Shown: one piece after another, positions 4,003 through 28,082 of the stretch
How positions within the stretch are numbered: the stretch's first letter is position 1
Layout of the letters: each line of letters opens with the position of its first letter
Position numbers and translations under genes: made by a program
Origin: Steromphala cineraria
Lineage: Eukaryota > Mollusca > Gastropoda > Trochida > Trochidae
DNA: 64,000 bases
Reading direction: 5' to 3'
Assembly: GCA_916613615.1 (NCBI GenBank)
Contig: OU744730.1
Location: forward strand, 31,096,815-31,160,814
The notes under the pieces: model-generated
The model's database searches: none
Told to the model about the DNA's origin: nothing
The model's input: only the letters and a program-made list of their open reading frames with translations

Positions 4003-4680
4003 GATGCTGATACACTTAAGTAGTTTCCACACCGAAGACTGCTTCTCTGTCTGGCATGTACACTAAAATGACGATGGTGCTTCTGATAGAAGATTGTGTA
4101 TGTTTCTTCTGATACTTCGAGTGAGTGAGTTAGTGATTGAGTTGAGATTTAACGCGTTTCAGCTATTTATTTAAGAGTGACAGATCAGGGATCAAAAGGA
4201 TGACGGAAATAAAGGCATAGTGAGATACAGAAAGCAAAGCTGTTGTCCGTATTGTGTGTCTACATTCATAGTATTTGATCGTTGCTTCTCTTACATGTAT
4301 ATTCTTACTGATATTTACAAATAACAAGTCGGTTATTATTCTATTCGTTTATTCAATAAACAATCGCTGCTGCAGCCTTTTCTAAAAATGTGTTTTAAAG
4401 TTCATAAAAAAGGTGTGAAAATGGCATATAAACTGCTGCAACATTGTCTTAAACCTATGACTTGTATGAAAATAGAAAACCTTTCTGGTTAAAATATCAC
4501 AGCTTCTTTGTCCTTGCATCATGATGTTTACATTCAGTAAACATCCTTCGTGACGTAATATAGATATCTCATACATCACAATCGTTATTACGTCAAGAAT
4601 GTGTCTCTCACTTGATAATCTGCATGACATCATAAATCTTTGCCTTGTGATGAAATTCTTTTTTTGGTAAACAATTCTTA

Positions 4681-4806: not shown

Positions 4807-5073
4807 TCATGTGTCTTGCAGGCTCTGAATCTCTCGTAACTCCCGGACAGTACATAAAGCGTGGAGATATTCTGAAAACAGTGTTATGAGACCTGCAGTG
4901 TTTTCCTTGGCAACACAGTGAGTATAAAGAGACACGCATTCCTCAGTAAACTGACACAGACACAACTGTTGTTCAACATGGCGTTGTTGTGGCGGAACCG
5001 GAAGTTGATGTCGGGATAGTTTTAAAGCGTAGGGTGCCGCCATCATGACTGTTAGTCGCTCCGCTAAGGAAAC
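4807..5073 (-). CDS. Exon 12 of TIR-TMEM268-like gene, C-terminus and stop
   Basis: A 267-nt terminal exon with acceptor CACTTTGGCAG and stop codon TGA. RLTVMMAAPYALKLSRHQLP then QLCLCQFTEECV parallels the C-terminal domain of TMEM268 (R-L-x-V, then a C-P-C-Q-L-I-E-like stretch). It runs about 40 residues past the vertebrate end with an amphipathic tail ending EIQSLQDT. Confidence 0.85.
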   Translation of the reverse strand, partial: VSLAERLTVMMAAPYALKLSRHQLPVPPQQRHVEQQLCLCQFTEECVSLYTHCVAKENTAGLITLFSEYLHALCTVRELREIQSLQDT

Positions 5074-8000
5074 CTGCCAAAGTGACAATGAAATACGTAT
5101 TTAATGGGCATGAATATACAAAGATAAATAAATTAGATGAAAAAATAAAAATCATTGTGTTCGTTTAGTTGCAAATTGTTTACTCCCAAACACATTAAAG
5201 CTTCTGATTCTGCCCGATAAAAACATGAATACATACTTCACAAATGTACATTGGTTATCGATCAACATGTTTATCTACTCCATATTAATTAACAATTATT
5301 GCCAAGAGGGGCTGAGACTTTGTTGACAATTAAATGACTCACCTCACTTAGATAGTCACAGTCTTTGGTATAGACTTTAATTAGCTGACACAACTTGTCA
5401 CAATCTTCATCTAAACAACTGCACAGAAGTAAGTTCACATCCTCCTGTAAAACATACACACGAACTAGATATATAACACGCCTTTTTTACATTTTCATTT
5501 CATAATAAAATATTACTTTAATGCAGTCATCATGAAAGGTGCATCTAATATCATATGGTGGGTGGTTGAAGTCATAACCATAAGTAATATTTCAGACCAG
5601 CTAGGTACCGCAAAACTAGGTGCACTATAAACTTGTTATTTAATTCATTTCTTTTTTCAAGATCATTACACAAGAAATATGATTTGTTTTATTAATTTTA
5701 AAAATCTAATGAAATTTGTTTAATTTGCAATCCATGGGAGTTACTTATCAAGAATAATGTCAACATTAAAGTTAAGAATACTTACAAAACAATCCATCAT
5801 CACAAAATAGTAAAAGTGAACCTGCATCAATTAAGGAAACATCAAAGTTGAATGGGCTTTCTGACACATTACATTGCCATACACTATGGGTAATAATTTG
5901 TCTTTATCAAACATTGTTTATAAAGATATCTTAAATTTCTTACATATTAATGAATATAAAAAAGGCAACGTTATTTAGATAGCAAATGTGAAACATATCA
6001 CATACAATACATACAAAGATGTTTATCTTAGCACGACTATCAATAATTGTCAAAGGAAAGATATAAGCCCCGTGCACTGTCTAAAACTGAAACGGGAAAA
6101 TGGGCCAATTGCAACAGAGTTAACCTTAGTCGTTGGAGCTCATACCCTACATTTTGCTAACACTGGGGTAATATCCTGATCACCTACAAAGACAAGTCTC
6201 TGGCTGTAAAGGATACAGTAAATCTGGCTCCGTTTTCCTGTGAAACCGTGAGTATAAGAGGTCTATCTTCCAGGTAGAGAGCGCTGTTGATATGTAGGCA
6301 ACGACTTAACATTCGTTTACATAACTGGAACAAATAAACTCTGTCATGATTCAATCTCGAGTAAGATATAAACAAGATATTGGAGACAATGTTCGTTTGC
6401 AAACTTCTAATAAAGATTTATATATGTACATTGATCGATATTGAAAGATAGATGTTAATAGAGTTTTGAAGATAAATGTTCAAGTATGAGGACAAATACA
6501 TTTAATCTCGAAACCTGTTTTCAGTTTTGGAGCGCCTACTTTATTTAAACGTTAATTTTTCATGCAGCGTCAAGTGCATCACAAACTTTTTGCTACAACT
6601 TCCTACGCAAAGCCTGTTGTTGTTGTTGGGTTGGAGTTTAACGTCTTCTTTCACCTACCGGTGATGTCGCCGACGTGTACGCAAAGCCTAAAACACCTGT
6701 TTATCATATTATGCCTTGCTTCTGAACCTTTACTTTCTTGTGCTGATATCAGCGCCCCTACATGCAAGAGCAGCAAGGCACAAAAGTGACATTTCGGAAA
6801 CTAGCGCTTTAGGCATTGCGTAGGAAGATGTTTATCTATAGCCGAGTTAACTTCTAGTGTTAAATCTATTGTCATCATGTAGAGTTTTCCTACCATTCGT
6901 ATATGTCGTCTCCGTCTCCACCTGACAACGTACACTCCAGAGATCAACAAGAGAGGGAAGACAAAGGTGACGAGACGAACAGTGAGGATGTCTGAAACAA
7001 AGCAATGTAATTGTGAAGAGTAGCTTGAATGTTTAGAAGCCTTTAAAACTGATGATTCTGACATTTGATAACGTTTATCAACTGGCTTTTTGCCTTTCAA
7101 TGAAGTACTAAAAATCCTTAGCTTCAACAGGAAAAGTCGTTTGTCAACTGGCAACATTACGAATCCTTAGCTGTAACAGGAACAGACGTTTGTTAAGATG
7201 TATTAAGTCTTTTAATGAAGCACTAAGAATCCTTAGGTGCAAAATAGTCGGTTATTAACTGGCTTTCAGTCACCAAATGAAGTACTAAGAATCCTTAGCT
7301 ACAACAGGTAAAGTCGTTTATTACCAGGGTTTTAGTCTTTCAATGAAGCACTAAAATCCTTAGCTGCAACAGGAATACATGTAATTGTTTATTAACTGAC
7401 TTTTAGTCTTTTAATGAAATACTAAAAATCCTTAGCTGCAACATGAATAGTCGTTTATGAACTTGCTTTTAGTTTTTATGGATGAAGTACTAAGAATCCT
7501 TAGCTCCGAAAGGAATAGTCGTTTATTAACTGGCTTTTAGTCTTTTGATAAAATAATACAAATCTTTAGTTGCAACAGGAATAATCGTTTATTAACTGGC
7601 TTTTAGTCTTTTAATGAATTACTAAGAATCCTTAGCTGCAAAAGGAAAAGTCATTTATTAACAGGTGTTTAGTCTTTAGATGAAGAACGAAGAATCCTTA
7701 GCTGCAAAAGGAATAGTCATTTATTGACTGGCTTTCACGTGTAAATGAAAAACTCTATCCTCCAGAATAGTTGATATGCGAATAACATCAACAAGCCGAT
7801 TGATATCATTGTATTATGATTAAATGGAGCATTAACATTTATTTTTTCAAGTCTGAATTTGTAATTGAATTACATCCGATGAACATAGAATAATGGTAAA
7901 TGTAACCATAGTCATACTCGAACAAAAAAATTGTTATATTTACAATAGGCCTAGCAAAATATTTATATGTGTAAGAAAACTGAAGTCAATCAGAAACAGA

Positions 8001-11000
8001 GTAACCTTGCTACTACCATGGGAACATTACACACTTATCTGATAAGGCATATGATTGAATAATAATATAATAATATCGGGGAAATCCAATTGGCTACATA
8101 TTACACAATACATAATTAAATGAATTTGATTTTACATTTTACTTATCAGCATCTTGAACGAGATTCAGATAAAATCCAGCTCATTATTTCTTTCGATTTG
8201 TTAACACAAAATCCTTTATTAAAAATCAGATTTCAGGAGGAAGCACATGTAACTTAATTGCCAAACATGTTACAAAAGTAAAGAAAACCTTTTCAACTTT
8301 TTATTGGGTTTTGAAGAGTGTGAACCAAACAGCTGTCAAATCTACTTGAGTTCATATAAAAGTACAATCGTGTTCAATTTCTGATGAATTTGCAAAATAG
8401 TGCTATTTTCGTCCTCTTCAACACCTGTTCACGATGCGCTACATTTATAACTACAAAAAGTAAAGGAACGAAAATACTGAAAGAAAGCATTATATTGATT
8501 ACGTTCGGTATGGCACGTCCATGTATTTGAAATTTGTTGACACGAGATATTGATTTTATTTCAAAGATGTTAAGAAGTCTGTGCAAATGATTTTAGCATG
8601 TTTTTTTTAGAGAAGAACGTGAACAGTTTTAAAGGTTGAAGTCCATATTAAAGGTCAGAGCCCAACCAAATTTATAATTCATAAACCGATATCCCAAGCA
8701 GTAAAGAATATCTAAGCCCTTTTGTTCTGAAGAATATGAAAAGGGGATACCATTATATAAGACTACAATGGCGATTATTAATTCTAATCGACAAAAGGAT
8801 AACAAAATCTACAGTTTCTGAAGACAAGTATAATGGCAAACAATTCGACAGTCTGTAAACAGGAATCTTTAGGAGAACAATCGATGGTAAATATCTAAAT
8901 AAGTTTCTCATAAACAATTGTCATCAAGATTATTTTATGGAATAATTTGGCAATAACGGCAAGTATACACTTTCAATCGTTTTCTACTATTAACAGAAAC
9001 ATTTCGTTAAAAAACCACACACAGTTTGGACATCCACAATTGTGAAAATGGAAGGTAGCGAGACGTATCTAATAGCCCGTGGGATCAAACGATTTTACAC
9101 TCCGATCATGACACACATTAATTTACACAGGACATTTTGTTAACTGCTTCACATACTGCAAACGATTAAATGGAATTGCCTTCTTTGATCTGGAGATTAA
9201 CACAATTCTTATATTACAGAGCGAAACATCTATTTCATCACAGGTAATTGTTTGGAACAGGGTGTACAGGAAAAATATATAATAAAATATCATATCGATA
9301 AAACTTACAAAACGCGTTAAAGAATAATGTTGTATAAAATGATATCAAACATGAAGCGCTGTGTAAGAAATTGTTGGAACGAATCTGAACAGCCAAACTT
9401 CCGAGGGAATGAATTCCTTAGCTTCTAGATATGTAACATACGATACTTGATTTCCAGTGTTACCGTATGTGATTTTGTAAATTGCATTTGCATACCTTGA
9501 TTCAGAACTTCATCATAGACATGTATCAACATCATTAAGAAGTTAAGTAAGGTCGTAATAAAGCACAACATAATCGTTAGGGTATGCATGTCTGCTTGTT
9601 GTCCTTATAAGAGGTCACAGGGTCACCAAGGCTATAAATTTTAACCCTAACTAGTCCATGAGTCAGTACAGAAGATACCAGCTTTCTAGGCATTTTGCTT
9701 CTGGAGAACAAAGATTAAATTGGTGTTAAGGTCATGACACCTGTTGCACTTTTTGGGGCCACAGGGTCAACAGGGTATATTATACTAAAACGCCAAGGAG
9801 TCTGTACACAACAGTTCAGCTTTCTACGCAATTTGCTACTTCAGAAGAAGTTTAAATGTACATCCTTTTCGGTCTGACGGAAGGACGGACGGGCGGACGC
9901 CGGACACCATGGCATAAGCCAGATGAAATCGAAATGAAAAAATGTGCTTATCGATCAGGTGTCATGTTTAGCGTAAAAACAAAGTCTTCATTATTATTTG
10001 ATGAATATGAAAATCTCAACACTTCTTACCTCCATGCATTTTTTCTCTCTTAAACACCTTATGGGGCAATGCTCTATTTTTAAACAGCCATCAAGCATAA
10101 ACTAATGACATGGTGATATTGATTTTGTTACTAAAAAATTAAAAGCAAACCCATCAATTTGAAGTTTGTTGACACAAGACCGCAGATTTGAAATTAATTG
10201 CCAAGAAATGAGGAAATGACGCACACTATCAGCACATGATTGAACTGTAACAAGAAATACTCTTTAGCAAACATCTTGCAAACTACTTTCGACAGACAAA
10301 CTTATTCAAGGTTTCAAAATGTAATTAAGCTCTTGCTCTAGCAAATTAACTATACTCTTTGTCACACACATAATTATAGATATTGGCATAGTCTCTTTTT
10401 GGACTCGCATGATATAAATCACTAACAATTTCAGAGTATGCTAGATCATAAATTGTGCATTTCGATATTAACTACTGTCAGAAACCTTTGAAAATGAAAA
10501 CAGAAAAGTAAGATTACTAGCAATAGTGATGATAATTACCACAATAACTGACTCATATTTGAATAGTTGAAAATAAATCATGAGTGTTCATGATAAGAAA
10601 ATATTGTCACTTTCCCATTATCTTTAAGTTTATAACAGACTATCGTTCAAATATCACTCATATTTTATTTCGCCCGAAAAGAAAACACGTGACTGCAACA
10701 AGGGTAGCCAATATCCCAAGGGATCAGAAGCTTAGAAAGAGCCACTGCTTGAGTTGACAGAGGTCGTACATTTGTATATGCGAAATTTAACCAATAGTGT
10801 AATATGATCGACCATTGAAGGAAAGAATCATTTTAAAACTAATTTACGTCATTTAGTGACAACAAGGAGGTTTGAATTCTTTGTGATCGAGTATCGGACA
10901 TTGACGGGTATTAATACGCATAGCAAAGCAAAGCAGTATATGATATGTAACTTATTGCACGAGACATTTTATTGAATTAGACATAAAAAAACACTATGTG

Positions 11001-14000
11001 AAACGAAGTTATGACCGCAGAATTTAACATGTCTGTTATTTGTAGCATTTATAAATGCGTTACTAACCATTTGGGTAGGTTCAATATCCTAAACACAGAA
11101 GAACAAATCTTGACTATTTTTAAATATCCAAAACACGCAGTTTTGAAACAAGAAAGATTTTAAGAATATGACCAGTGAATACGATTATTCAGTTTAAACA
11201 TAACAAGATATCGTATCTAAAAGTATAATAAGATCTATTTTTCGATTAAACAAATTGAAGTCTTTATTCGGCGCCTCAGCAATGAATACCTGAAAGCTAA
11301 TGATAGCTGCAGGCCTTCAATGCCTACCAAATCACTGTAACAATTACTTTTGATGTACTCGTAGATTGAATAGAAACATTCCCGAAGGGTTTCAATTTAA
11401 TTCCATTACCTTAAGATGCAATTGGTTCTAGTTTCTATAAAGACATTGTTAGTAACCATCCAACTTCATTGGTTCTGGTACCATAATATAACAAATAGTC
11501 TACCTGCTCTGTTTGTGTCTACAAAGACGACGATGATGAGGATAAAAGCAAGAGTCCACACCCCAAAGGCAGACAGCAGGACTATAGCGGGCTGCAGGGA
11601 GAAGACCCAGGGAGCTTGTGTAGACCCGTGGTTCACCTGGCTGATACTCTGGAGCATGTCCCAGTACTCACTCTGGTCCAGCTGCAGAAAGGGTCATTTC
11701 ATATTATTGTAACATGTCTCAGGGGAATTTTTCATTCATATCAGTTGATTTGAAAATAATTCATTCAAATATTGATAGACAATGTTCACGTGAATATTGA
11801 TTTGAGCATGTGATACAAAGTGATTTTTACTATTTTCATCACGACCTGATTAATGTCCTGGAAACTGAATTATTCAAGTCGTCATTGTAGTTTTCGGAAT
11901 TGTGTTGATGACTTTAAAAATACTTAGATTAGAATGAACGATTTCATATAAATTTGTCCAATAAGTATTTCCTTAGTATAGCTGTATAGCTGCATATACT
12001 TAGGCTATTGGATGTGTGTCTGACAAGCATGGTAATATTATATCTACAATAATGTCAACTACTGGAGGGGCCAAGGTATAACAAGTACCCGTTAGGTTCT
12101 TCCAATAACAGCTGGACAGCTGAAAGATGCAATGCAATTTCCTTTGATTATTAGACGCCTGAGGGGCAGCTCGGGTTATTCTCGCATAGTAAAAGAAGGG
12201 CTCACGTATGATTTATTCATTGATATCGTGACCTTAAATTGTCCATGTACGATAGTGTATACTTGCGGGAGAAGGGATCAGGTGTGAGAAACACATACAT
12301 TGATATGGTAACTTAATAACGACCAATGTACGATAGTGTATACCTCTGTGACATCTTACGAATGGTTAACAGACCAACATTGATAATAATAATAATAATA
12401 ATGAACATTTTTAAGCCTAATATCTATTGCAAGCACTGCTCATTGACTGTACATTATTTCCCTGAAGGAACTACTTTCAAAGCCGCTACTAAGCGCTTCG
12501 CGCGACCACATAGGTCCGTACTTCCCGTATTCAGGTACCCAATTGTACAGCTGGGTAGACTGAGTGCAATGTGGATGAAGTGCCTTGCCCAAGGACACAA
12601 CACGGTGTAAAGCCCAGGTCACAAATCTTTGGTGTCTCCACCTGGATTCGAACCCGGGTCTTTGGCGTGATAGGCCAGCACGCTAACCACTACACCACCG
12701 CGCTCCAATACGTCGGCACATAGTTCACTGATTGATTAACCAACATGGTAGTATATACGTACATTGATGCCGTGACACCGGAGTGGACCAGGTATATCCT
12801 CATCCTTCTCATCAATCATCAGGTGTGCCTGCAGGTATCCACGTATCTCGAACTGGACGGAGGCCAACACCTGGCCGTTGACGAGATCTGACACAAAAAT
12901 CAAACTTATTAATTTAATAACAATTTATATAAAAAATATATATATGTTTATAATAATTTAATATTTTTTCAAAATAGAATTCTGTTACTCTACTAAAACA
13001 TCGCATCAATGATGAGTAACTCCAATTTTGTAACTTATTAGATCACATAAAAGTGAACTGGGACTAGTATTTTAAAAGCTTTGAAACGAATTTGCGATTG
13101 ATTGAAATCTGTAATTATCTATAAAATTGCTCAGTAGTTTCAAAAGTTCTGCTACAAATGATTTCGTCTTAAAGTCTGCAAGTCTTTAAAATATGCATAT
13201 TTTTTCATGTATAGATTGAAATATAGATATGTAGAACTTAATGAATAAAAACATGCTCACTTGCCCGTGTGGACAACACTGCTGCTATATCACTGCTTAT
13301 TGATTCGCTGCTTCGTGGTAGGCGACCTGAAGAAAGATATTTCCTTTTTAAATGAATGAATACATACGTGTATACATGAATATTATCGGTTTCTCTTTAA
13401 ATAGAAAAATCTGTTTAAGGACGGTATGGATATAGGTAATTCTAGCATGTCATGAAGTTTCGTGTAATGTTTATTTGTTGGAATAGAAATACTTTGTTTT
13501 TGGCATTACGTGTTAGCTTTAATTGGTTGTTTGTATTGGTTACGTGCCTCAGAGATAAAGTGGTAGACCTAAGTATCTAAATCTACTCTTGTGTTTCATG
13601 TTGAAAAGCCTGTCAGTCTGGATTGATGTAAAGTTAACATACTGGGGACATGTATTGAGTCACACCAGTAGCCTTTTTGCTAATCCCTCTTAATCGCTGG
13701 TTATCATTCGCGTTAATCATCATTTTGATACAAAATACATTATACTCTTTGAACCTAAATATGAAACGTTTCTATTATACACCAGTTTGAGAGTAACATG
13801 TTCTAGTTTCAGTAAGAGGCATATGCTCTATTGCATTACTTCAACACATTCCTCTTAAATATTCCGTATAAGTTAATGTTCGAATAACTCTCCATTGCAA
13901 AATAACTAATGGACCCTAGGGCCCGAGGCTCATTATCGTTTAGGAATGGAGAGAATAACGAGGATATTAACCGACATAAATTACACTTAACATAATGCCT

Positions 14001-17000
14001 ATTCAAAATCATAAAATAAAATAGTTACAAAAATTAAATTTCAAGTGAAAAACTTGATGTAACATACAACACTCCATTACTGAAAAATAATGGCGCGTGA
14101 GAACAATAGGCTGACGTCACAAGTGTAATTCAAAGACCTATTGTTGTTAATTTGTGTTCGGGATTTACTTCTGAATACGGTAGAGCATTTCTAAAACGCA
14201 TTAACATTGTTTGTTTAAACTTACAGCAGCTGTCGCATGGATTTAATTTTTTACTATGTGATGAACGAAGCAATCGATGTAACAACCTTTTTTATGTACT
14301 GATGAAAATACTTGAGTAAAGAGATTATTTACATTTTTCTTCTATTTTTTTCTAATTTCCAAAGAGTTTTTACAGAAATGTTAAAAATGTTGTATACCTA
14401 TATCTGTCATTTTTATCAATGAACATTTTAATTTGTTTGATATAGACGTTGATAATCAATTGAAACTCATCAGTCTGATGTGCATTCTCTCCCCACAGAG
14501 GCAGATCACGTCCAGAAATGTTGATACAGCCTCTGTTATATTACGTCGAGTTTGTGGGATAGAATGGGAGATGCCTGATTAGAGACAATGAAAGTTAGTT
14601 GTACAATCAACGACGCTGTTCTTAAATCATAATTTTGGCTAAGAAATGATGACAAAGGCATCGTGATATGATTGTGGTGCAATTTTTTCTCCGCCAGGGG
14701 CACTGCCGGAACCCAGGGATTTCGGCGTATTAGAACAAAGGCTGTATCAACATGTTTTGACTTGATCTGCCTCTGTGGGGAGAACGTGTCTGATGTGATG
14801 GACGAACTAATCAAAGTGGCAACATCTCTTGTACTTATTCAAATATTCGAATAAAAATATTAGACAAAGAATTGTTTTTTATTTGAAAAAAAATCCAATG
14901 ATTTTGTACAGAAATGTTGAACATGTTTCCTTAAATATATCTGTGATGTCTCTGAATGAACACTAATAATGCTTTATATAGACATTTGACAATCAATTAA
15001 AACTCAACAGTGGGGCGCTTCCGTTTAAGAATATTTCAGCCAGCTGTACTTTTCCAAATGAATAGAAATTCTTGTGAATACAACGCATTCACTCCAAGCT
15101 CTAAATTCGGATTTCCTGATTCTCTTTTATCATGAATATGTTTAAAGGTAAGCAAAAGAGTGCAGAAGAGTGTTTTAATCAGGGTCTATTTCTGAACAAA
15201 AATAGATTAAGAACAAATTGTGATTTGTGATTTTGTCTTAATGATAGTTTATAAGTTAGAAGCTAAAAGCAACACAAGAATGGCGAATGGATGGCGAAAC
15301 GGGCAAGTTAGTAAGTTACTCGTATGGTAAATGTAATTGGTGGCGGTGTGTCTGACTCTGACGGTGTGGGTTCGAATCCCGCAATGGGCGCGGCCCGAAA
15401 AGGTACAAGAATCTGTACTATTGCAAATAATGTAAACAAAATATATGATACAAATTTTATGGAATTCTTTTAGAATACAGTAGTGTCAATAGGTGTTCAT
15501 GTTTTTAGTTTTTCAGGATATCCTAATCTTTCAAACAATTCTGTATGTAAAAGTGCCAAGTTTGACTAACCCGATTCCTCGATCTTCAATGGAAGCGTTT
15601 ATAGATACTTTACATATTGATCTCTAGTATGGAGATGCTGATAGTTACAATTTCAGTTTATTTTGATGACGTATTCTAATTGAAGTGAAAGCCGATCAAT
15701 GAAGTGATACTTGAAAATTCAAGCCAACAAAAGATGCCATCGAAAGTCTGAAATGAAACTTTACTATTTTCAAAACGAGAAATGGCATACAGTTGAATTT
15801 ACCACAGACATCAAAGAGACTAAGCAATAACGAACAAATGATAGCATACAAGTAAATAATGTTTTTATTGCTTTTCACTATAATGTTTGCAATGATTGCA
15901 GTCTTGAAAAAGAAAATATGTATTATATATTTTGCATATCTCTTATATATTTTGCTTATCTTTTACATTTATTTTCTATCAGTTTTATAACGTGAATGTA
16001 TTTTGTTGAAATCTAGATATTTTGCAACATAATGTTGATAGACAGATTGCAGGATTTGAATAACACGTAAAAAAACGCCTGAGTAAATTCAAAACTGAAC
16101 AAACAACTCAATACGGATTCAGAAGTTGTTAATCGGATAATTTGTATACTCTGATTTAAGAACCAGTTTGTAAACCGTTATTGCCCCTGCAATTGTAAAC
16201 GTTGCCTAGATCGATTGACTTTGATTTGCGTGAGACTTGATAGCGAACAGTCTGGGTTCAACTGTCTGTTCGATTACATGGCTTAATACATAACGTGATT
16301 AATGGTCCGGAAGGATATTTGTAGGGCGTTAGCCACATCTATAGGAAAAGCAAAGACAATGAATTAAGCTCTTCGTAAAAGACTTTGACAGACAGATTTT
16401 GCACGCAATGCATCTTGACTTAAGTTGAGAATGGTGTCTGGTTTGCTTGAAGAAACACTTAAAGTCGAAAGTTTTTGCGTACAAAAAAGTTGAATTCAAT
16501 GCTCGTTGTATTTAACACATACTAGATGAATCAAAAGTTGAACATTATAAAAACATTGTAAGAATATTTGAATTCGAATGGTCATTTACATGTGTGCCAT
16601 GGATGATGATAGCATAACTGTGTCACAATTTCACGTCAACATTCGACCAGGCCACTTCTCTTATAATAAACATTAAGTTCTTTTAACATAACTTTAAAAA
16701 ATAATCTTATCAATTTTTTTTGCATGTTGACCCACACGCTGTAATGGTATATTTAAAAAAACATAACTTTTCTTATGAATTGGTCAATCATATCTTTATA
16801 CAATAGTAAAGGTAACCGGTCGTTTTACTTAAACGATAATAAACAGAAGAACGTTTTTCTCTTAAACTTATATAGCTATAGATTAGCCATAAATTGTTAT
16901 TCTTCCCTCTGTGAGATCCTTATATAGTGAGATGGGAAGACAGTTAAAGCCTGTTAGTAATTACTTTACTTCCGATGTGAGACACACTTGTGTTTTATTC

Positions 17001-20000
17001 TGTATCATTTCTTGATGATGAAACGGATATCCAAAGATTTTAGTTAACATCGATCAAATTATTTTAAAAGTATTGTCAAAGGTGTGTTGACATCATGAGA
17101 CAATATCATTACAATCGAAACTTTATATTCTTCAGAAAACGTAATCATATAGCAATCCGAAGAACTATTTGGGTATCAAAATCAGTGCATGCAGCAAATG
17201 TAGTAATTCATTGTTTAAATGTACAAAATATATTAAGAAAATTCTTGCTCATAAAAGTGTAACTTGACTTATAATTTATTAATTTATCTTATTTGGTACT
17301 CTACTTGCTATATTGTGAATTACATTCCAATTGTACTTGGGCCAATGACCTACAAAACCGAAATATAAATGGATTGAATCGAAAAAGTCAAAACAGTGCC
17401 AAAACGTTGTGTGCCTAAAACGCAGCAAAAATTATAATCGTCACTTAATGCTATAAATGTATTGCTTACCACTTTTCAACCTGCTTGCAAATAGATGAAA
17501 GAATCCTGGCTCTGTTGCATCGAGGTAACTACAAATATCCAATATCTCAGGAATTTCACACTCTTCTGTCTTAACCACCAACATGCGTTGTTTATGAAGA
17601 CTCGTTGCAGTCAAACTCTTGAGGATATCCTGAAACTCTGGCCAGGTCTCCTCAATATACTTCTTTGATAGCACCAGCACAACACGTTCACTTAGCATCA
17701 CTGCACACAGGAGGTTCTGGGTAATACTAAGCCTCCTGTTGAATTTCTCACACAAATGGTAGGTCTTGTACTTGTAGGGTGGACTCTCCAAGCTATCCAC
17801 GGTATTCCTGACCCAGTCCACGTCAGACGGGTTGTGAGAGAAGAATATGTGGTACCTGAATAGGAATGGAGTTTTTAGTCAAAAGAGACAAATACAATGC
17901 AGAGCACTAGGCATTTGTATTACTTTATACTTCAGGGTGTAAGTCTGATATATCACCCCCATGAAGCGCATGCTGCGTTGTTATTATTTCCGCCTTGAAT
18001 TAGTGTAGTTCTAAATAATTATGAATTTTATATACGTTTAAAATTCAATAATGGCACAAGATGGCACATGGCAAATACAAAATCATTTAGAAGATTTGTG
18101 GTAACTGAACGTGGAAAGAGGTTTTAGTCCAAAAACACGACCGATTCATAACCATGAAGAGCATGAAGCATTTGCATCATCATATACCGCTGGGTATAAG
18201 TCTAACAAAGTCAAACCTTGTGAAGTATGTTGCATTCTTATGATTTATGTTTCTAAGGAAAGGGTGATATTTTCAAAACCAAATTCAATGATTTTGGTAA
18301 AGGGTAGATCTTAGATACGATTCTTTTAAGTTTTTTAAGTAAGACATAGATACAGAGAACCAATTCATCCTTTAATCTTTGCTTAACACAATATCAAATA
18401 TATTTTTTCTAAAGAGAGATGTTTGATTGTTCATTTGCATACCCCTTAAATGGAACCAATGGATTGTAAACATAAAAATAGTTGTAAATATTTAGGTAAT
18501 TTGCTTTATCCTTGAAACTACTGTTATTAAACCTCTTCTAGAACTTCTTTACCTATAGAGGTCATTAAGGGGCGGTGCTTCGAGCTGAACATCGTCCTCA
18601 ATGTCCACATAACTGTCCACACAGCTGTCCACCAGGCTGTCCTCAGCCAAGGACACGTCCTCCCTGTACAGCTGGTAGCCATTCTCACACTGGTAGTCTC
18701 CCGTCAGGTATAGGGTGTCCTCGTGTGGGGTGTCTCGTGGTATTAGGATCTGGTGGTCTGCAGAGAGAAGAGCCAATTTAAAAGAAGTTGTATCATGGAA
18801 TGAATTGAACGTTAAAGAGCCTCTCCGTGATTTACGTATCCTTTTCTTTTGCTTTGATTCGGCATTTAATTGACATTAGTCACGACATAAATTCAATAAA
18901 TTCCACATACTCATTGACAAATGGCTTCTATATTTATCTCAGTATAACTGGTATAGACTCCAGTACCTTGAAAGGCGCAAATGTTTGAATATGTTTATTG
19001 GACAGAAATCTGAAGTCGCAGTGTAGATGTATGATATAGCCCCATGCTGCTTTTCAAATAGGATAACCAATCTTCATGTTTCTTTCGTTTTAGAAGTGGT
19101 CTACTCAAAATGATCGACGTCTCTAGTCACTTAGTTTAAATTAATTCACTGTTGACATCCACCGATCAACTCATTAGACTAAACTGCACTGAAAGCATTA
19201 AACATAACTTTCATTCTTTGAAGCCAAAGACAACCAGGACATAAGTAATTGTAAATTTTGTCATTGCATCTTTTGTTATTTAACAGCTGCTTTTCACAGC
19301 ATTACAATACCATTCATGGACGAAACCCTTCCCTTCTCCGACCTGTTGTTATATATACACACAAAAATCAAAAGTGACAAAAAAAAACCCTCATAAAAAC
19401 AAAAGTAATATTTGCAAATATAATCCGATTATTTTGAGCCGTATAATGCAACATACCTGAATATGGTAACAAGACATTCTATATTCTGCATTATTCACTG
19501 TCCTTAATTAAGGCAACATCTGGTACGTTTGTTCAAAATCTAGAGTTTTGCATACCAATAAACTAATATTCAACTTATCATATTTCTATCAGTAAACAAC
19601 AGGTTTTATTCATATGTCAAAATGAATAGCTGTACGTGTTCGTTTCTTGTTCGTAAACGATTATTAAAAAATACACAATAAATAATGGAACAGCTTGATG
19701 TGCCAAAATCATGAGCAATAATACTACCATTACGTCATTTTCGTAATATTCTTCAAATAAGAGAGGTTTAAAATAATTTCTAATCTAGGTAAAATGTAAA
19801 TACACTGGGATAACCGTTTTTCTTTTTATCCGCTTTTACCGAATATCAATGTAGGACATAATTCTCCCATGATCAGATTTATGTTAACTCTCAAGCATAT
19901 CGTAAAAAGAAAGATTGAGCAAAATCAGTTCTTCTTTACTTTAATCGTTTGCATCAATATGTCTATGGATTTAATACTGACAGACCTCAAGGTCTAAGAC

Positions 20001-23000: not shown

Positions 23001-26000
23001 TAAACAATGTGAACACAAGCAGTACATAGGTATTTACACAATCACGTTTGTGGTTAGGTACAATAATAAAGTTGAGAAAAATCAGCAGTATTCAAAAAAG
23101 ATTATGACATATGGACCAGAACTTAGTGAAATCATCATATTTGCACTCTGAATACGAATTATAGCGGTCAACGAAGTACATAGTTTTAATATCTTCCTTT
23201 ATATGTTTCAAGTTTGGCAATCTTTCCCTTTGTTTCATTTTGAAAATGTTATATTTTACAACTGATGTGATGAGATTTAAAACAAAGTTTCTCTTTTCAC
23301 AATATCCTAAGATAATATTTTTGCTGGAAAATGTAATTATTGTACCGGTTTTTTCATATATCCATTTTTCTATTTCTTTCCATATACTCTTAACGAATTT
23401 ACATTCGCATAATAGATGTAATATTGATTCTACATCGGATTTGCAAAAAGAACATTTATTAGATTCTATGTATTTCATTTTCATAAGCAAATCATTTGTT
23501 GGCAGAAACCTATGAATTATACTGTATTGGAACCAGGATAGCTTAACACTGTTAAACGGTTTAAAGGATATTTTTTCAATTTTTTCCCAAGTTTCTTCCT
23601 CAATGTGTTCTTTCAGTTCATTTTGCCATTTTCCTCGGTATGTTAAAGGTTTTATAGGTTTTGATGATATCAGAATATCGTAAATTTGTCTACATCCTTT
23701 TGGATCCCCTACAATATCTTGTAATAGATAGGGTAGAATTGGTGCTTGAATTTTCTTTTCAATTTGAACTTTTATAGATTTGTAGTAGCTAATGGATTTT
23801 GCTGATTCCGGGAAACCATTCCTTTTTCTAAACGAAATAACAGTTGACAATGATTTTAAAGGGGCAGTAGCACGTTTTTTGATTATTTTATATATAAAAC
23901 ATTTCACTGATAATTGTAAGTTAATGTTAAATGTATTATTTTGACAGTGTCAAAAATCCCATTACACAAGCCAATTATCCATGATCAGAGGACAAAGTAT
24001 GAAGATTCACGTAAAATTCATTGGCGGCCATTTTTTGAGAACACCTTTAATTCATTTTGTGTAAGAAAAGGGAATCGCATGGCTAAACGTTACGTTATAT
24101 ATTTGAATTATTACTGCTTCATTTCCATTTTCCTGACATCACCTTATATTCCCCCTAAAAATGTGCTACTGCCCCTTTAAAGGAGACGGCCCTTCTTCTA
24201 CCGCCTGTTAAGTTAAGATATATCTGTAAAGGAAATCTTTTTACTTACTGGTTAACTTCATATTTCTGCTTTAAAAACAGCAGAAGTTTCACATTAACCT
24301 ACATTTCAAGTCCTCATTAATTGTAGTTTCGATTCATGGATATATGCTACTCACCGTCATCCATTGCTAAAGCCGTCGTCCTGGCTTTAAGTTCCTTGTT
24401 GTAGACATTGCGACAGTCTGTAAGCAAATAAGAAATGAATGAGGGAAATAACGTCTATCAGTGTGTATAAATAGAGGATACTAAGGGACCTATCATTTAA
24501 TACTATTTTTATTAAACGAGCGAAAGCGAGTTTGATACACAACCATTCACGAGTTTAATAAAAATAGTATATAATGGAAGGGTGTTCAGTATTCTGTTTA
24601 TGACTTGCCCTAAAAACCAAGCAAACTTGACGACAATGCGATTAAATATCCTTTCCGCAACTCGGCAGCCATTGTAAGTTTGCTTTTACAATGTGACGTC
24701 ATGCTTGCTTTATGGTATTACACTAGTTGGATGTTGCCGGATAAATATTACACTGCGATATCTTACGAGTAATAAAGTGATGTTTTGTATATGATGGTAA
24801 TTTGCAAAGTTAATATACCAACATGATCATATCAAGAAAGAATCCTAGGTCTTCTTGTTGAGTCAGATACTCTACCAATTCATCAAAAGGGATAACCTAT
24901 TACCGAATACATTAGGATTAGGTATGTATCTCTTTCTTTCAAGTAAAACAATATTTACCAAGGTGGAATTTCTGAAATAGATAACAACCTTTCATAATCA
25001 GAAATTATCAAATTATTGATAAAAACGCAAAATAAGTTTAGACAGTAGTTTTTGTAAGAGGTCAAACATCTGCCATTTATCAATAAAAAAATCGTATATG
25101 TTATAAAAGTGATCTCTTGACATACTTTAACACGGATGTAGAAAAATCAAGTCGATACATATCTTAATTTAACCAACTACATGTTCAGAAGATTGAATAC
25201 TGACACAGAAAATCTTAATTATGATGTACTATTCCACAAGTAATGACTCGGCCAAAATTATTAATGCAGATGTCTAACTTTGACATACATCACATGGCAC
25301 ACATTATTTACCAATGTTTGACCCAATTAGTTAATGTAACCATTACATAACTCCCGACAACCACAATTAATAATATAATATACGCGTAACACGCGGATAC
25401 ATACAAATACTGGCCTTTACAACTAGGGCTCGAGAAATCAATAATTTACGCAGAAACTCAATTTCACAGGAGTTTATGAAAATCCAACAAATGGCCATGT
25501 ACACGCGTTTTTATTCCGGTTACACAAGCCTTAGCAAGTATCAAAATACAGTGGCATTGTTAACAAGCTATTCAAGATATTTAAGCTATGTCCGGACCAA
25601 ATACTCGTTTATCTAGAACCGAATGCCCCCATGCTTCACACCATACCACCCCTAGGGCTTTTCGTAAGGCAATTCTTTCCTAAGAAGTCTTGAATATTAT
25701 TAAAAACAAGATATACCTAATGAAAAGTAAAAACAAGACATAAATAAAAAAACGTGTCTTGGTATCTATGTTAATAAATATTCTTTGTTCATTTATAAGC
25801 AGGGCTTTGAAGTAAACACAGAGTCCTGTCATTAAGGAGGTTGAGAACACGAAAGAGTGAGGTAAATGCTGGAATTGCATATCAGTTTCTTTTTAGAGGT
25901 TTGCAGGACCATTTGACCTAGACCTCATGGAGTGGTAATTTCTTACAGATTTTACTGATGAGTTGTCCCAGGGCTTATTCAGCGTAAAGCATCCAACATT

Positions 26001-26782
26001 TGCTCCTCAGTAATCACAGATCCATACAAGTAGCTAAGCATCATGTAAAATCAATATGTTCTGTCAAGTCAAACTTCACCTTATACAACCTTAAACAAAT
26101 ACCAACACATGCGATGACAATGGGGTTATTTAAACGACAGCAGCTTTCCAATGAAATATTTATCAACAGACGGTCATATACAAATTTAGTCGCTTAAACT
26201 TGCAATGAGAATATCATGATCCCAATTTGTCTCTTGGTTAACACGTGTTAATATTCATGTCAAAATTAGTTCTGTATTCATAAAGGTATTGATTTACATC
26301 CAACTATTTGAAATGGAAATCTCATTTCAGTGAAAAGAAGTATATGAATTAACCAAAACCCAGCACAATGGTATGATGCAATGCATGACAGCATACATGT
26401 ACATGTATAAACATATATTTTTATCATCTGATTATGAAAATAAACCCAAAAGTTATAACCGAAAACACAAGTATATGGAAGAATCAAACAAATGTGTAAC
26501 ACTCTGTGACATCGTCGATTTGAAGCAGTGGTACAACCTGATACTGAATATCTATCCTCGGACAGTTGAAACCCTGAAAATGCCTCCATATCTAAATTCC
26601 TAGAATCAACACACCTCACGTGTTGACAGTATACGAAAGAACATCATTATATAAATACATCTTAACAAAATAATCACAAATAACCTACTCATAGCATCAT
26701 TATGTAAATACATCTTAACTAAATAATCACAAATAACCTACTCACCGGCCGACATGGTCAAGCTCGTAAAATCCATGTACAT
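4807..26782 (-). CDS. TIR domain fused to TMEM268-like (DUF4481) two-pass membrane protein, 12 coding exons
   Basis: Joined minus-strand exons: 26782-26746, 24417-24355, 18757-18553, 17855-17470, 13326-13261, 12887-12763, 11681-11504, 6991-6894, 6324-6217, 5821-5786, 5444-5343, 5073-4807. They total 1671 nt (556 aa plus stop), with every junction in phase. Order of parts: acidic leader (1-101), TIR domain (103-230), linker, NGQVL motif (about 257), two transmembrane helices (about 330-385), RWRRRR turn, C-terminal domain. Family knowledge: TMEM268/DUF4481 proteins share the NGQVL motif, paired helices and Cys-rich tail; their biochemical role is poorly known. TIR domains act in innate immune signalling or NAD cleavage. 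By inference, both termini face the cytosol and the protein is a membrane-anchored TIR adaptor. The start is the first ATG after an in-frame TAA; ATGs at codons 3 and 10 are alternatives. The exon 8 and exon 9 donors are the weakest calls. It could be two genes misjoined, but phase continuity argues against that. Confidence 0.85.
5343..5444 (-). CDS. Exon 11 of TIR-TMEM268-like gene
   Basis: A 102-nt phase 0-0 exon with acceptor TGTTTTACAG and donor GTGAGT. It encodes EDVNLLLCSCLDEDCDKLCQ and on to DYLSE. Five cysteines occur in 34 residues. It follows the microexon in the TMEM268 alignment. Confidence 0.85.
5786..5821 (-). CDS. Exon 10 of TIR-TMEM268-like gene, 36-nt microexon
   Basis: A microexon encoding VHFYYFVMMDCF between acceptor TTGATGCAG and a perfect GTAAGT donor, phase 0-0. 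It aligns with the hydrophobic, aromatic IQLWFVYFDLEN segment of vertebrate TMEM268, which is otherwise missing. It is easily lost by automatic annotation. Confidence 0.78.
6217..6324 (-). CDS. Exon 9 of TIR-TMEM268-like gene
   Basis: A 108-nt phase 0-0 exon with acceptor TTTGTTCCAG. INSALYLEDRPLILTVSQ resembles the TMEM268 segment after helix 2. The donor ACT|GTATCC is weak, but using it makes the protein run without gaps along the vertebrate family into exon 10. The open frame continues ten residues past it before a stop, which would give a truncated form if the intron were retained. Confidence 0.75.
6894..6991 (-). CDS. Exon 8 of TIR-TMEM268-like gene, second transmembrane helix
   Basis: Acceptor TTTGTTTCAG. 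It encodes ILTVRLVTFVFPLLLISGVY and then RWRRRR, a cytosolic stop-transfer turn. The donor is uncertain. ATG|GTAGGA at 6894 (98 nt) and GAA|GTTAAC at 6852 (140 nt) are both phase 0, giving proteins of 556 or 570 residues. Reading on into the intron gives a further 16 residues and a stop at 6801, a possible short isoform. Confidence 0.8.
7072..7736. repeat. Minisatellite of about 66 bp, roughly 10 units
   Basis: The marker AATCCTTAGCTGCAACAGGA recurs at about 66-bp steps (7115, 7164, 7230, 7292, 7357, 7429, 7497, 7629, 7695). The second unit has an internal deletion. It lies in intron 7 just upstream (in transcript order) of exon 8. Confidence 0.9.
7740..9580. other. Intron 7 interior with no recognised feature
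   Basis: AT-rich intron sequence. A hydrophobic ORF at 8374-8586 (minus) includes IFVPLLFVVINVAHREQ after a CTTTCTTTCAG acceptor-like site, but its phase does not fit the gene. It is not annotated as an exon. Confidence 0.5.
9590..9915 (+). mobile_element. Helentron/pearl-like remnant with GGAC microsatellite
   Basis: Two diverged copies of a unit of about 145 bp (around CAGCTTTCTAGGCATTTTGC at 9680 and CAGCTTTCTACGCAATTTGC at 9820) end in a GGACGGACGGGCGGACG tract. This is the same layout as the better-preserved element at 45468-46161. It sits in intron 7. Confidence 0.55.
11504..11681 (-). CDS. Exon 7 of TIR-TMEM268-like gene, first transmembrane helix
   Basis: A 178-nt exon with acceptor CCTTTCTGCAG and donor GTAGAC. 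DQSEYWDMLQSI matches the DQYRSL region of TMEM268. It is followed by a helix of about 23 hydrophobic residues around SAFGVWTLAFILIIVVFV, then the polar loop DTNRA. Confidence 0.9.
12382..12706 (-). mobile_element. tRNA-derived SINE, reverse orientation
   Basis: Minus strand. The tRNA-like head has box A (GTGTAGTGGTTAGCG) and box B (GGTTCGAATCC). The body carries the conserved TGTGTCCTTGGGCAAGGCAC segment, and the tail is (ATT)n, seen as (AAT)n at 12382-12403. It is in intron 6 of the TIR gene. A second copy lies at 28083-28338. Confidence 0.88.
12763..12887 (-). CDS. Exon 6 of TIR-TMEM268-like gene, NGQVL motif
   Basis: A 125-nt exon with acceptor TTTGTGTCAG and donor GTACGT. It begins NLVNGQVL, the signature at the start of the DUF4481 body in vertebrate TMEM268. 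It continues with a beta-rich segment (SVQFEIRGYLQAHL) and an acidic loop. It ends in phase 0. Confidence 0.85.
13261..13326 (-). CDS. Exon 5 of TIR-TMEM268-like gene, linker
   Basis: A 66-nt exon with acceptor CTTTCTTCAG and donor GTGAGC, phase 1-1. It encodes RLPRSSESISSDIAAVLSTR, a Ser-rich linker between the TIR domain and the TMEM268-type body. It is small but matches the phases of exons 4 and 6 exactly, so it is the critical bridge for the fusion. Confidence 0.75.
14483..14788. mobile_element. Mutator-like MITE with 9-bp target duplication
   Basis: The ends are CATTCTCTCCCCACAGAGGC and GCCTCTGTGGGGAGAACGTG, with long inverted terminal repeats and an inner repeat GATACAGCCTCTGTTATATT. 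It is flanked by the direct repeat TCTGATGTG at 14474-14482 and 14789-14797. It has no transposase, so it is non-autonomous. It is in intron 4. Confidence 0.88.
15345..15405 (+). repeat. tRNA-like SINE head fragment
   Basis: Box B-like GGGTTCGAATCCCGC follows a degenerate box A. A full cloverleaf cannot be drawn and no tail is visible, so this is probably a SINE relic. Confidence 0.45.
17470..17855 (-). CDS. Exon 4 of TIR-TMEM268-like gene, complete TIR domain
   Basis: A single 386-nt exon carries the whole domain. Box 1 reads YHIFFSHNPSD, the equivalent of the (F/Y)DAF(I/V)SY strand. The box 2 region runs from LCEKFNRR through the hydrophobic strand VVLVLS to SKKYIEETW. The C-terminal helix region ends with GFFHLFASRLKS, matching the box 3 FW position. 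Oddity: the S-x-W-C-x-x-E motif that carries the catalytic or structural Glu in many TIRs reads ETWPEFQ, so Cys and the Glu at the usual spacing are missing. This favours a scaffold over an NADase role. Acceptor TTCAG, donor GTAAGC. Confidence 0.9.
18553..18757 (-). CDS. Exon 3 of TIR-TMEM268-like gene, acidic leader
   Basis: A 205-nt exon between acceptor CTCTCTGCAG and donor GTAAAG. It encodes an Asp/Glu-rich, probably disordered cytosolic segment, including a run of VDSCVDSYVDIEDD type. The region is locally GC-richer than the flanking introns, as expected for a real exon. Confidence 0.85.
20196..20505. repeat. Two-copy tandem repeat of about 140-165 bp
   Basis: The segment starting TGATGGTCGAATG and AAGCAAGGCATATCCA, with ACTGAGAAC, CAATCA and GAAACATTCA blocks, occurs at 20200-20335 and again at 20341-20505 with insertions. 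It is in intron 2. Confidence 0.7.
21195..21330 (+). repeat. Dispersed repeat fragment, paralogue of 1-140
   Basis: Matches 1-140 in order and orientation (AATTAC, GATCTTC, GTTATTAC, CATAAAGACTGA, CGTAAAAGG-like blocks). It is in intron 2. Confidence 0.55.
22304..22398 (+). mobile_element. piggyBac-like MITE, 95-bp internally deleted copy
   Basis: The ends are AGGGGCAGTAGCACGTTTTT and AAAAGTGCTACTGCCCCT, flanked by TTAA on both sides (22300-22303 and 22399-22402). It retains only the left part of the internal sequence. It is in intron 2. Confidence 0.9.
22884..23786 (-). mobile_element. 5'-truncated LINE retrotransposon copy
   Basis: Minus strand. It contains the C-terminal part of a reverse-transcriptase ORF (23092 to about 23786) and a 17-A tail (T run 22884-22900 on the plus strand). 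The direct repeat AGCTAATGGATTTT at 22873-22886 and 23787-23800 fits a target-site duplication from target-primed reverse transcription, with the tail side overlapping it. The open frame runs on by chance into flanking DNA up to 23907. Confidence 0.8.
23092..23786 (-). pseudogene. LINE ORF2 C-terminal fragment, zf-RVT domain
   Basis: About 230 residues are open. The motif IHRFLPTNDLLMKMKYIESN then KCSFCKS, ILHLLCECKFVKSIW matches the reverse-transcriptase zinc-binding region (C-x2-C, HL, C, W) at the end of LINE ORF2 proteins. The polymerase and endonuclease are absent, so it is inactive although the frame is intact, suggesting a fairly young insertion. Confidence 0.85.
23860..24176 (-). mobile_element. 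piggyBac-like MITE, full length
   Basis: The terminal repeats AGGGGCAGTAGCACG and its complement are flanked by TTAA (23856-23859, 24177-24180). The internal sequence is reversed relative to the copies at 47905 and 51030. It sits 60 bp from the LINE copy and 180 bp from exon 2. Confidence 0.92.
24355..24417 (-). CDS. Exon 2 of TIR-TMEM268-like gene
   Basis: A 63-nt exon of phase 1-1, with acceptor TTTGCTTACAG and donor GTGAGT. It encodes a short polar segment (CRNVYNKELKARTTALAMDD). It has no recognised domain; it is called from perfect splice sites and phase continuity with exons 1 and 3. Confidence 0.75.
24504..24575. repeat. Foldback: 18-bp inverted repeat
   Basis: ATACTATTTTTATTAAAC and its exact complement GTTTAATAAAAATAGTAT enclose a loop of about 36 nt that contains GAGCGAAAGCGAG. 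It lies in intron 1 near exon 2 and may be a small foldback element. Confidence 0.6.
26642..26747. repeat. 53-bp tandem duplication touching the exon 1 donor
   Basis: Two copies (26642-26694 and 26695-26747) of CATCATTAT..TAAATACATC and AATAACCTACTCA. On the minus strand the copy edge includes the GTGAGTAG donor of exon 1. The second copy carries TGAGTAG without the GT donor. Confidence 0.85.
26746..26782 (-). CDS. Exon 1 of TIR-TMEM268-like gene (start codon)
   Basis: Encodes MYMDFTSLTMSA plus one base of a split Asp codon, ending at a strong GTGAGT donor. An in-frame TAA lies about 50 nt upstream. A possible 3' splice site (CTAGTCTACAG, exon side starting at 26876) could join this to a distal non-coding first exon. 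An out-of-frame upstream ATG opens a short ORF that stops in exon 2. Confidence 0.7.
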
Positions 26783-26959: not shown

Positions 26960-28080
26960 ATATTTCAGGAGTGTCATATCCAGCACTCCATAAACTGGAA
27001 TATCCTGGACATCCTACATTATTGAGCCATCTTCAATATGCTTCATTGAGGAAGTGGTATATGGATCAATTTAGATATTTATAGACCTCCAATTTGAAAT
27101 ATCCTGAACATTTTGAAGCAATCTTCAACATGTGTCATGGACGATGTTATATATTGTTAGATATTTATAGAAATCCGTAAATTGACATTTTCTGAACATT
27201 GTATCTTCCATTAAGAAGCAATCTTCAACATGTTTCATTGAAGATGTGGTATATGGATCAATTTAGATATTTATATAACTCCAATTTGAAATATCCTGAA
27301 CATTGTGAAGCAATCTTCAACATGTGTCATGGACGATGTTGTATATTGATAGATATTTATAGAAATGCGTATATTGAAATATTCTAAACACTGTGTCTTC
27401 CATTGAGGAAGTGGTATAGGGATCAATTTGAATAACTCCAATTAAAAATATCCTGAGCATTGTATCTTCCATTATGAAGCAATCTTCAAGATGTGCCAAG
27501 GACGATACTATATATTGAATTCTTCTTAGAAATGTATAGAACTATATTGAAATATCCTGAACATTGTATCTTTCATTATGAAGCGATCTTCAAGATGTAC
27601 CATGGCCGATGTGATATATTGAACCGTTTTAGATACTTATAGAACTCCACATATTGAAATATCCTGAACATTGTATCTTTCATTATGAAGCAATCTTCAA
27701 GATGTGCCATGGACGATGCTATCTATTTAATCTTTTTAGATATTTATAGAACTCCATATATTGAAATATCCTGAACATTGTATCTTCAATTATGAAGCAA
27801 TCTTCAAGATGTGCCATGGACGTTGCTATATATTTAATATTTTTAGATATTTATAGAACTCCGTATAATGAAATATCCTGAACATTGTGTCTTTCATTAT
27901 GAAGTAATCTTCAAGATGTGCCATGGACGATGATATATATTGAACCTTTTTAGATATTTATAGAACTCCATATATTGAAATATTCTGAACATTGTATCTT
28001 CCATTATGAAGCAATCTTCAACATGTGCCATGGACAATGTCATATATTGAACCTTTTTAGATATTTATAGAACTCCAATT
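26960..28080. repeat. Satellite array of about 107 bp, roughly 10 units
   Basis: The unit holds ATATCCTGAACATTGTATCT, TATGAAGCAATCTTCAA, ATGTGCCATGGACGATG and TTTAGATATTTATAGAACTC. Unit starts fall at about 107-bp steps (27557, 27664, 27770, 27878, 27985). Degenerate units continue after the SINE to about 28560. The array begins roughly 180 bp upstream of the TIR gene start. Confidence 0.9.
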
Positions 28081-28082
28081 GT

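What the first reader, a model, noticed from the sequence alone, without database searches (positions are those of the whole stretch)
4807..26782. TIR domain fused to a TMEM268 (DUF4481) membrane body
Twelve exons join in phase into one protein. It starts with a cytosolic acidic leader and TIR domain and continues as a complete TMEM268-like protein (NGQVL motif, two helices, Arg-rich turn, gapless 32-residue match across exons 9-11). The alignment is against vertebrate TMEM268 recalled from memory. I know of no described TIR-TMEM268 protein. It would be a new membrane-anchored class of TIR protein, possibly part of the expanded innate immune repertoire of molluscs, acting without leucine-rich or immunoglobulin ectodomains.
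Basis: partly seen in the sequence, partly recalled or inferred. Interest (0 to 1): 0.88.

Follow-up and report, generated by a model that had tools for sequence, protein, structure and literature searches.

The report
Abalone TIR domain on TMEM268 anchor
An abalone gene joins an immune-signalling TIR domain to a two-pass membrane protein related to mammalian TMEM268, and the same unnamed combination is found in snails, oysters, mussels and octopuses, which suggests a conserved but unstudied molluscan immune protein.

Summary
The fusion is real. On the minus strand of a Haliotis genome, 11 coding exons (not 12) join in phase with GT-AG junctions into about 530 residues: acidic leader, TIR domain, Ser-rich linker, TMEM268/DUF4481-like two-pass membrane body. 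Both halves, whole or in part, occur in 15 of 18 homologues and one more, from 11 named mollusc genera, so neighbouring genes wrongly joined is very unlikely. Pfam TIR passes its cut-off. DUF4481 passes in an oyster orthologue, not in the abalone protein, but a profile match to mammalian TMEM268 is collinear and beats shuffled controls. The membrane half appears single copy. The TIR lacks Box 2 (0 of 11 rows) and usually the catalytic Glu (absent in 11 of 13 rows), so a non-enzymatic scaffold or brake on a membrane's cytosolic face is likeliest. Mouse TMEM268 binds an integrin tail and supports phagocytosis; coupling integrin traffic to TIR signalling is the leading, untested mechanism. I found no description in print, but the main bivalve TIR survey could not be read.

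The parts
26746..26782 (-). coding exon 1 (leader start; likely true ATG at 26755)
   Evidence: GT donor; weakly supported, 3 of 12 residues match H. cracherodii
18553..18757 (-). coding exon 2, acidic leader ending APPLNDLYR
   Evidence: 54 of 65 aligned residues identical to H. cracherodii
17470..17855 (-). coding exon 3, complete TIR domain
   Evidence: Pfam TIR_2 34.2 bits vs cut-off 28, TIR 23.6 vs 21.3 on the open frame that holds the exon; MyD88 TIR closest in PDB by sequence
13261..13326 (-). coding exon 4, Ser-rich linker (66 nt, phase 1 on both sides)
   Evidence: present in 11 of 13 rows, absent in P0006 and P0010
12763..12887 (-). coding exon 5, start of TMEM268-like body (NGQVL)
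11504..11681 (-). coding exon 6, first transmembrane helix
6894..6991 (-). coding exon 7, second transmembrane helix and Arg-rich stretch
6217..6324 (-). coding exon 8, stalk helix and first hairpin strand
   Evidence: missing with exon 9 in the P0011, P0012 and P0013 models
5786..5821 (-). coding exon 9 (36 nt), second hairpin strand
5343..5444 (-). coding exon 10, C-terminal helices
4807..5073 (-). coding exon 11, RH...CLCQ motif and stop
   Evidence: open frame 4807-5100 gives DUF4481 15.9 bits, profile positions 250-292 of 293 (below cut-off 25)

Best explanation
An apparently single-copy gene, found in gastropods, bivalves and octopus, encodes a two-pass membrane protein whose N-terminal part carries a TIR domain and whose body is a divergent TMEM268. 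Shown: the gene structure, the conserved fusion, two hydrophobic helices, the absence of Box 2 and, in most rows, of the usual catalytic Glu. Inferred: both ends face the cytosol and only a loop of about 7-11 residues lies outside, so it does not sense ligands with an ectodomain. It most likely works as a membrane-tethered, non-enzymatic TIR scaffold or brake that sits on the plasma membrane or endosomes through the TMEM268 body, which by homology may bind integrin tails, and so couples haemocyte adhesion and phagocytosis to TIR (TLR/MyD88-type) signalling. The Ser-rich linker exon between the two parts is a plausible regulatory hinge.
For: 11 exons in phase, all GT-AG. By my reading of the sequences, 15 of 18 homologues carry both halves, whole or in part, the other 3 the TIR only; Argopecten P0021 adds one. 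P0005 is a 563-aa frame held on contigs of at most 2,798 bases, as a spliced transcript would be. Linker exon kept in 11 of 13 rows, octopus and mussel included. TIR: Pfam cut-off passed; MyD88 first by phmmer and by Foldseek E-value. TMEM268 body: 6 of 8 rows match DUF4481 at E<=0.1, C. virginica passes the cut-off, 27.1 vs 25, hhalign collinear over 240 columns, E=3.6e-4, score 35.7 vs at most 23.0 in 40 block shuffles and 15.6 reversed. Topology: 9 K/R in the 30 residues after helix 2, none in the 30 before helix 1. Box 2 in 0 of 11 rows of this family vs 15 of 16 other TIR loci of this genome. Function by homology: PMC11169502 (abstract, passages and section 11) and PMC6748091 (passages).
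Against: The abalone protein itself does not reach the DUF4481 cut-off, nor does its H. cracherodii or Argopecten relative list DUF4481 at E<=0.01; hhalign probability is only 36.8. No expression, location or partner data for any mollusc. Integrin binding is shown only for mammalian TMEM268, aligned at 22% identity. Losing Box 2, a main TIR-TIR contact of TLR adaptors (PMC7075850 passages), argues against an ordinary activating adaptor. P0017 and P0018 end just after the TIR exon, so a TIR-only form may also exist. Three snail rows keep the Glu (P0004, P0006, P0016).
Confidence: 0.5

Rival explanations
1. The TIR is a brake or decoy: without a normal BB loop it binds MyD88- or TLR-type TIRs non-productively and holds them at the membrane, so the protein dampens TIR signalling instead of passing it on.
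For: Box 2 is present in 0 of 11 rows of this family against 15 of 16 other TIR loci of this genome; Octopus P0013 carries a long low-complexity insert in that region; Tmem268-null mice show stronger LPS inflammation (PMC11169502 passages).
Against: Other TIR stretches are strongly conserved (LYRYHxFFSH, LSERVV), as expected of an active interface; no binding data.
Confidence: 0.35
2. A membrane-tethered NADase effector: the TIR cleaves NAD+ when the TMEM268 body clusters.
Against: Position W+4 is Gln in 9, Arg in 2, Glu in 2 of 13 rows (several rows are close relatives), so the residue is not kept across the family.
Confidence: 0.05
3. Two neighbouring genes, TIR and TMEM268-like, joined wrongly by the reader and by gene predictors.
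For: P0017 and P0018 stop after the TIR exon and P0016 lacks the membrane half; P0019 and P0020 hold only the C-terminal half.
Against: Same join in proteins of 11 named genera and same linker exon in 11 of 13 rows; P0005 on short contigs; P0017/P0018 tails look like read-through into the next intron (inference); P0019/P0020 begin inside the first helix or at the second, so they look truncated; P0016 is marked partial and keeps part of the linker.
Confidence: 0.02
4. The membrane half only looks like TMEM268: a helical hairpin found by chance, not a homologue.
For: Low identity (22%), hhalign probability 36.8, abalone protein below the Pfam cut-off.
Against: Collinear motifs at both ends (NGQVL start, RH...CxCQ end), an oyster protein passes the cut-off, all 40 shuffles score lower; the rat model, of low confidence, shows a similar order of elements.
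Confidence: 0.05

Closest known systems
TMEM268 (C9orf91, DUF4481), mammals
   Same: NGQVL start, two hydrophobic helices, C-terminal RH...CxCQ motif; collinear over 240 columns
   Different: No TIR domain; DUF4481 spans residues 38-328 of 342; 22% identity in the alignment
MyD88 TIR domain
   Same: Closest solved TIR by phmmer and by Foldseek E-value; in the alignment MyD88, too, has Gln where the Gln of this TIR lies
   Different: Box 2, present in MyD88, is absent; attached to a membrane body, not to a death domain
Oyster TIR-STING (6wt7)
   Different: No STING match in the Pfam scan here; different body
ecTIR-DC families of invertebrates (Gerdol et al. 2017)
   Same: Conserved invertebrate TIR proteins thought to be adaptors or regulators (PMC6321704 passages)
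   Different: The members that I saw described have ARM-like and death domains (family 6) or LRRs (family 14); the original paper is not held, so inclusion there cannot be excluded

Membership tests
TIR domain (PF13676/PF01582) | Pfam curated cut-off | tested here: met
   TIR exon frame: TIR_2 34.2 vs 28, TIR 23.6 vs 21.3; whole protein: TIR_2 30.5 vs 28, TIR 20.3, just under 21.3
TIR domain (PF13676/PF01582) | TIR fold | tested here: met
TLR/MyD88-type signalling TIR | Box 2 / BB loop RDxxxG | tested here: not met
   0 of 11 rows of this family; 15 of 16 other genome loci and MyD88 have it
Enzymatic (SARM1-type) TIR | Catalytic Glu in the alphaC region (position recalled, from no call) | tested here: not met
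   Gln in the window; 9 Gln, 2 Arg, 2 Glu of 13 rows
TMEM268 / DUF4481 (PF14800) | Pfam cut-off 25 bits in the window protein | tested here: not met
   Not listed for the whole protein; last exon frame alone 15.9 bits
TMEM268 / DUF4481 (PF14800) | Pfam cut-off in an orthologue of the same architecture | tested here: met
   1 of 4 proteins scanned passes (C. virginica P0009, 27.1 bits); M. coruscus P0008 reaches 23.5, P0001 and P0021 list none. The precomputed column gives PF14800 for 3 of 18 (P0007, P0009, P0011)
TMEM268 / DUF4481 (PF14800) | End-to-end collinear profile match | tested here: met
   hhalign 2-261 against 38-330, E=3.6e-4, probability 36.8; score above all 40 shuffles
TMEM268 / DUF4481 (PF14800) | Two transmembrane helices | tested here: met
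   Hydropathy peaks at 302-332 and 331-357; helices 316-338 and 346-396 in the orthologue model
TMEM268 / DUF4481 (PF14800) | Integrin-tail binding | not testable with these tools
   Shown for mammalian TMEM268 only
Toll-like receptor | LRR ectodomain | tested here: not met
   Pfam scan at E<=0.1 lists no LRR; both helices lie C-terminal of the TIR
TIR-STING | STING cyclic-dinucleotide domain | tested here: not met
   No such Pfam match at E<=0.1; no dedicated test was made

The most novel reading that the evidence does not exclude
The fusion is a pointer to function: TMEM268 is an ancient partner of TIR signalling in animals, separate in vertebrates and welded together in molluscs, and it restrains or localises TLR/MyD88 output while it stabilises integrins for phagocytosis.
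Probability: 0.2. Interest if true: 0.82.

Novelty: new variant of a known kind. Interest (0 to 1): 0.62.

Why it matters
An architecture kept from snails to octopus implies a job that is hard to lose. It ties a little-studied integrin-stabilising membrane protein, recently shown to matter for antibacterial immunity in mice (PMC11169502), to TIR signalling, and gives a direct prediction to test in mammals: does TMEM268 act with a TIR protein? It also adds a membrane-anchored TIR with no predicted ectodomain, no Box 2 and, in most rows, no catalytic Glu.

Tried and rejected
Twelve exons: no usable twelfth exon found; the 21-nt candidate 11088-11068 gives a stop (my reading). Upstream residues 1-34 of H. 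cracherodii sought in the window by tblastn: no convincing match (best E 0.46); the matching query from H. rubra ran too, but its rows were cut from the printout.

TIR-less TMEM268 in molluscs: none convincing; Littorina P0019 and Nucella P0020 lack the TIR but look truncated. One search was weak: it missed P0007 and P0010, whose membrane halves were in the query and whose lengths were in range. Whether other invertebrate phyla hold the fusion or a plain TMEM268 stays open: the search from human TMEM268 found 217 proteins and listed the best 120; those with a name are mammals, and the precomputed column gives DUF4481 without TIR. The other 97 were not seen.

Own-genome search with PF14800 found nothing, but it rang in none of the 14 control genomes either, so it says nothing. 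Rat TMEM268 model: mean pLDDT 35, used only for the order of elements. No solved relative of the membrane half by sequence: the profile gave none, rat TMEM268 one chance-level row at E 0.47. In the fold comparison the rows cover mainly residues 90-225, so the membrane half was barely tested.

Literature: no paper holds 'TIR domain' with TMEM268 or with C9orf91, one holds DUF4481, three hold ecTIR-DC. Of 34 papers that hold TMEM268, 20 were listed and I opened two. Searches listed 20 of 28, 15 of 20 and 10 of 50 papers; I opened only some. One search was badly posed and told nothing.
Full report
What is there. The gene lies on the minus strand of the window. Eleven coding exons, 26782 down to 4807, join in phase through GT-AG introns into a 535-residue model. 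The TIR domain fits into exon 3 (17855-17470), a 22-residue Ser-rich linker is exon 4, and a TMEM268-like body runs from NGQVL in exon 5 to the stop in exon 11. Exon 1 is the weak point: 6 of the 12 other rows of the alignment begin MADDH, MEEDH or MAEDQ, so the third ATG of exon 1 (MSADH, at 26755) is the likely start.

Is it one protein? The search with the model returned 18 proteins, all from molluscs where a source gives a name (only the 7,994 candidates sharing most words were scored). By my reading of the sequences 15 of the 18 carry both halves, whole or in part (P0002 lacks the first helix, P0003 the second, five lack the stretch of exons 8-9); three (P0016, P0017, P0018) carry the TIR only. 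A second search added three: one with both halves (Argopecten P0021, C-terminus missing) and two C-terminal fragments (P0019, P0020). Named genera with both halves are Haliotis, Gigantopelta, Physella, Pomacea, Saccostrea, Mytilus, Crassostrea, Pinctada, Magallana, Octopus and Argopecten: gastropods, bivalves and cephalopods (classes recalled). Every residue of exons 3-11 aligns to H. cracherodii without gaps. P0005, with 563 residues in one frame, is held on contigs of at most 2,798 bases from a source marked lgn, which I take (recalled, not shown) to be assemblies of sequencing runs; for a gene with introns that means a transcript. P0017 and P0018, also lgn, end right after the TIR exon with tails (SEYSF, SKL) that read like the donor site of the next intron translated (inference); they may be unspliced RNA or a real TIR-only form. 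Two neighbouring genes is therefore very unlikely.

The membrane half. The abalone protein itself misses the DUF4481 cut-off. Six of the eight membrane halves in A2 match DUF4481 at E<=0.1, best 1.1e-6, and C. virginica passes the cut-off (27.1 against 25); of the other three proteins in that call M. coruscus reaches 23.5 and two list no match. Profile comparison with nine mammalian TMEM268 proteins is collinear from NGQVL to CxCQ, E=3.6e-4, 22% identity, probability only 36.8; its score, 35.7, compares with at most 23.0 in 40 block shuffles and 15.6 reversed. The model of the H. cracherodii orthologue (mean pLDDT 69.7, pTM 0.54; ten-residue blocks from residue 251 on average 65-94; residues 1-93 and the linker below 50) shows a 23-residue helix, a short loop, a 51-residue helix, a beta hairpin and C-terminal helices. 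The rat TMEM268 model, of low confidence, shows a similar order. I call it TMEM268-like and probably orthologous, not a certified member.

Topology and copy number. Nine Lys/Arg lie within 30 residues after helix 2, none within 30 before helix 1. By the positive-inside rule (recalled) both ends face the cytosol, so the TIR is cytosolic and only about 7-11 residues face out. In the 1.27-Gb own genome, every match that reaches beyond query residue 212 lies in this locus (60 matches, 81 of 143 candidates scored), so the membrane half appears single copy; a distant plain TMEM268 could be missed, and the follow-up search did not complete.

How it may work. Mouse TMEM268 work: it binds the CD11b tail through residues 1-152 and protects CD11b from lysosomal breakdown; knock-out mice have weaker phagocyte adhesion, migration and phagocytosis and do worse in sepsis (PMC11169502: abstract, passages and section 11 seen). 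They also react more strongly to LPS. Human TMEM268 residues 104-342 bind the ITGB4 C-terminal region (PMC6748091, passages). Putting a TIR on the cytosolic N-terminus of such a protein would place TIR contacts beside integrin tails on the plasma membrane or endosomes. That step is inference. Loss of Box 2 and of the Glu makes an enzyme unlikely and leaves two live readings, scaffold or brake.

Novelty. No paper in the library joins 'TIR domain' with TMEM268 or C9orf91. Surveys that I saw in passages list ARM-, Ig-, EGF- and TPR-TIR proteins for oyster (PMC4346834) and ARM-, EGF- and COR-TIR proteins plus 17 with only a TIR for Aplysia (PMC9334734). That Aplysia 'only TIR' class could include this gene, since DUF4481 is easily missed. 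Gerdol et al. 2017 is not held, so it may already appear there under an ecTIR-DC number.

Noticed in passing
window 28092-28148 (+) and 12472-12707 (inverted partner of 28082-28317): tRNA-derived repeat: Rfam tRNA 38.5 bits at 28092-28148, with an 85% inverted copy in the intron after exon 5; ARAGORN finds no tRNA gene. Looks like a SINE.
   Followed up: partly
window 28903-29252, 14488-14783, 3688-4005: Palindromic element, probably a MITE: the 28903-29252 copy has 61-base arms that are 100% complementary; two more diverged copies in the window.
   Followed up: partly
window 23092-23949 (-): Fragment of a LINE-type reverse transcriptase gene (zf-RVT, 44.3 bits) inside intron 1.
   Followed up: no
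window 1694-1969 (-): Weak DDE_3 transposase fragment (19.1 bits, below cut-off 28.6).
   Followed up: no
window 7161-7735, 27025-28077, 31851-32291, 45570-46087, 50003-50395, 54065-54480: Tandem arrays with periods of 42 to 192 bases; the first lies in the intron between exons 6 and 7, just upstream of exon 7.
   Followed up: no
P0011, P0012, P0013, P0014, P0015: Models from Mytilus, Magallana and Octopus lack the stretch of exons 8-9, which would remove the beta hairpin in phase; possibly a conserved splice variant.
   Followed up: no
P0013, P0014: Octopus orthologues are named 'histone-lysine N-methyltransferase' and 'serine/threonine-protein kinase pats1' in the public record; both names look wrong, perhaps caused by a low-complexity insert in the BB-loop region.
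   Followed up: partly
L008, L009, L011, L012, L013: Closely similar TIR proteins, each in a single long open frame (364-431 aa), on three other contigs of this genome, with Box 2 and WCxxE intact; may be intronless copies.
   Followed up: partly
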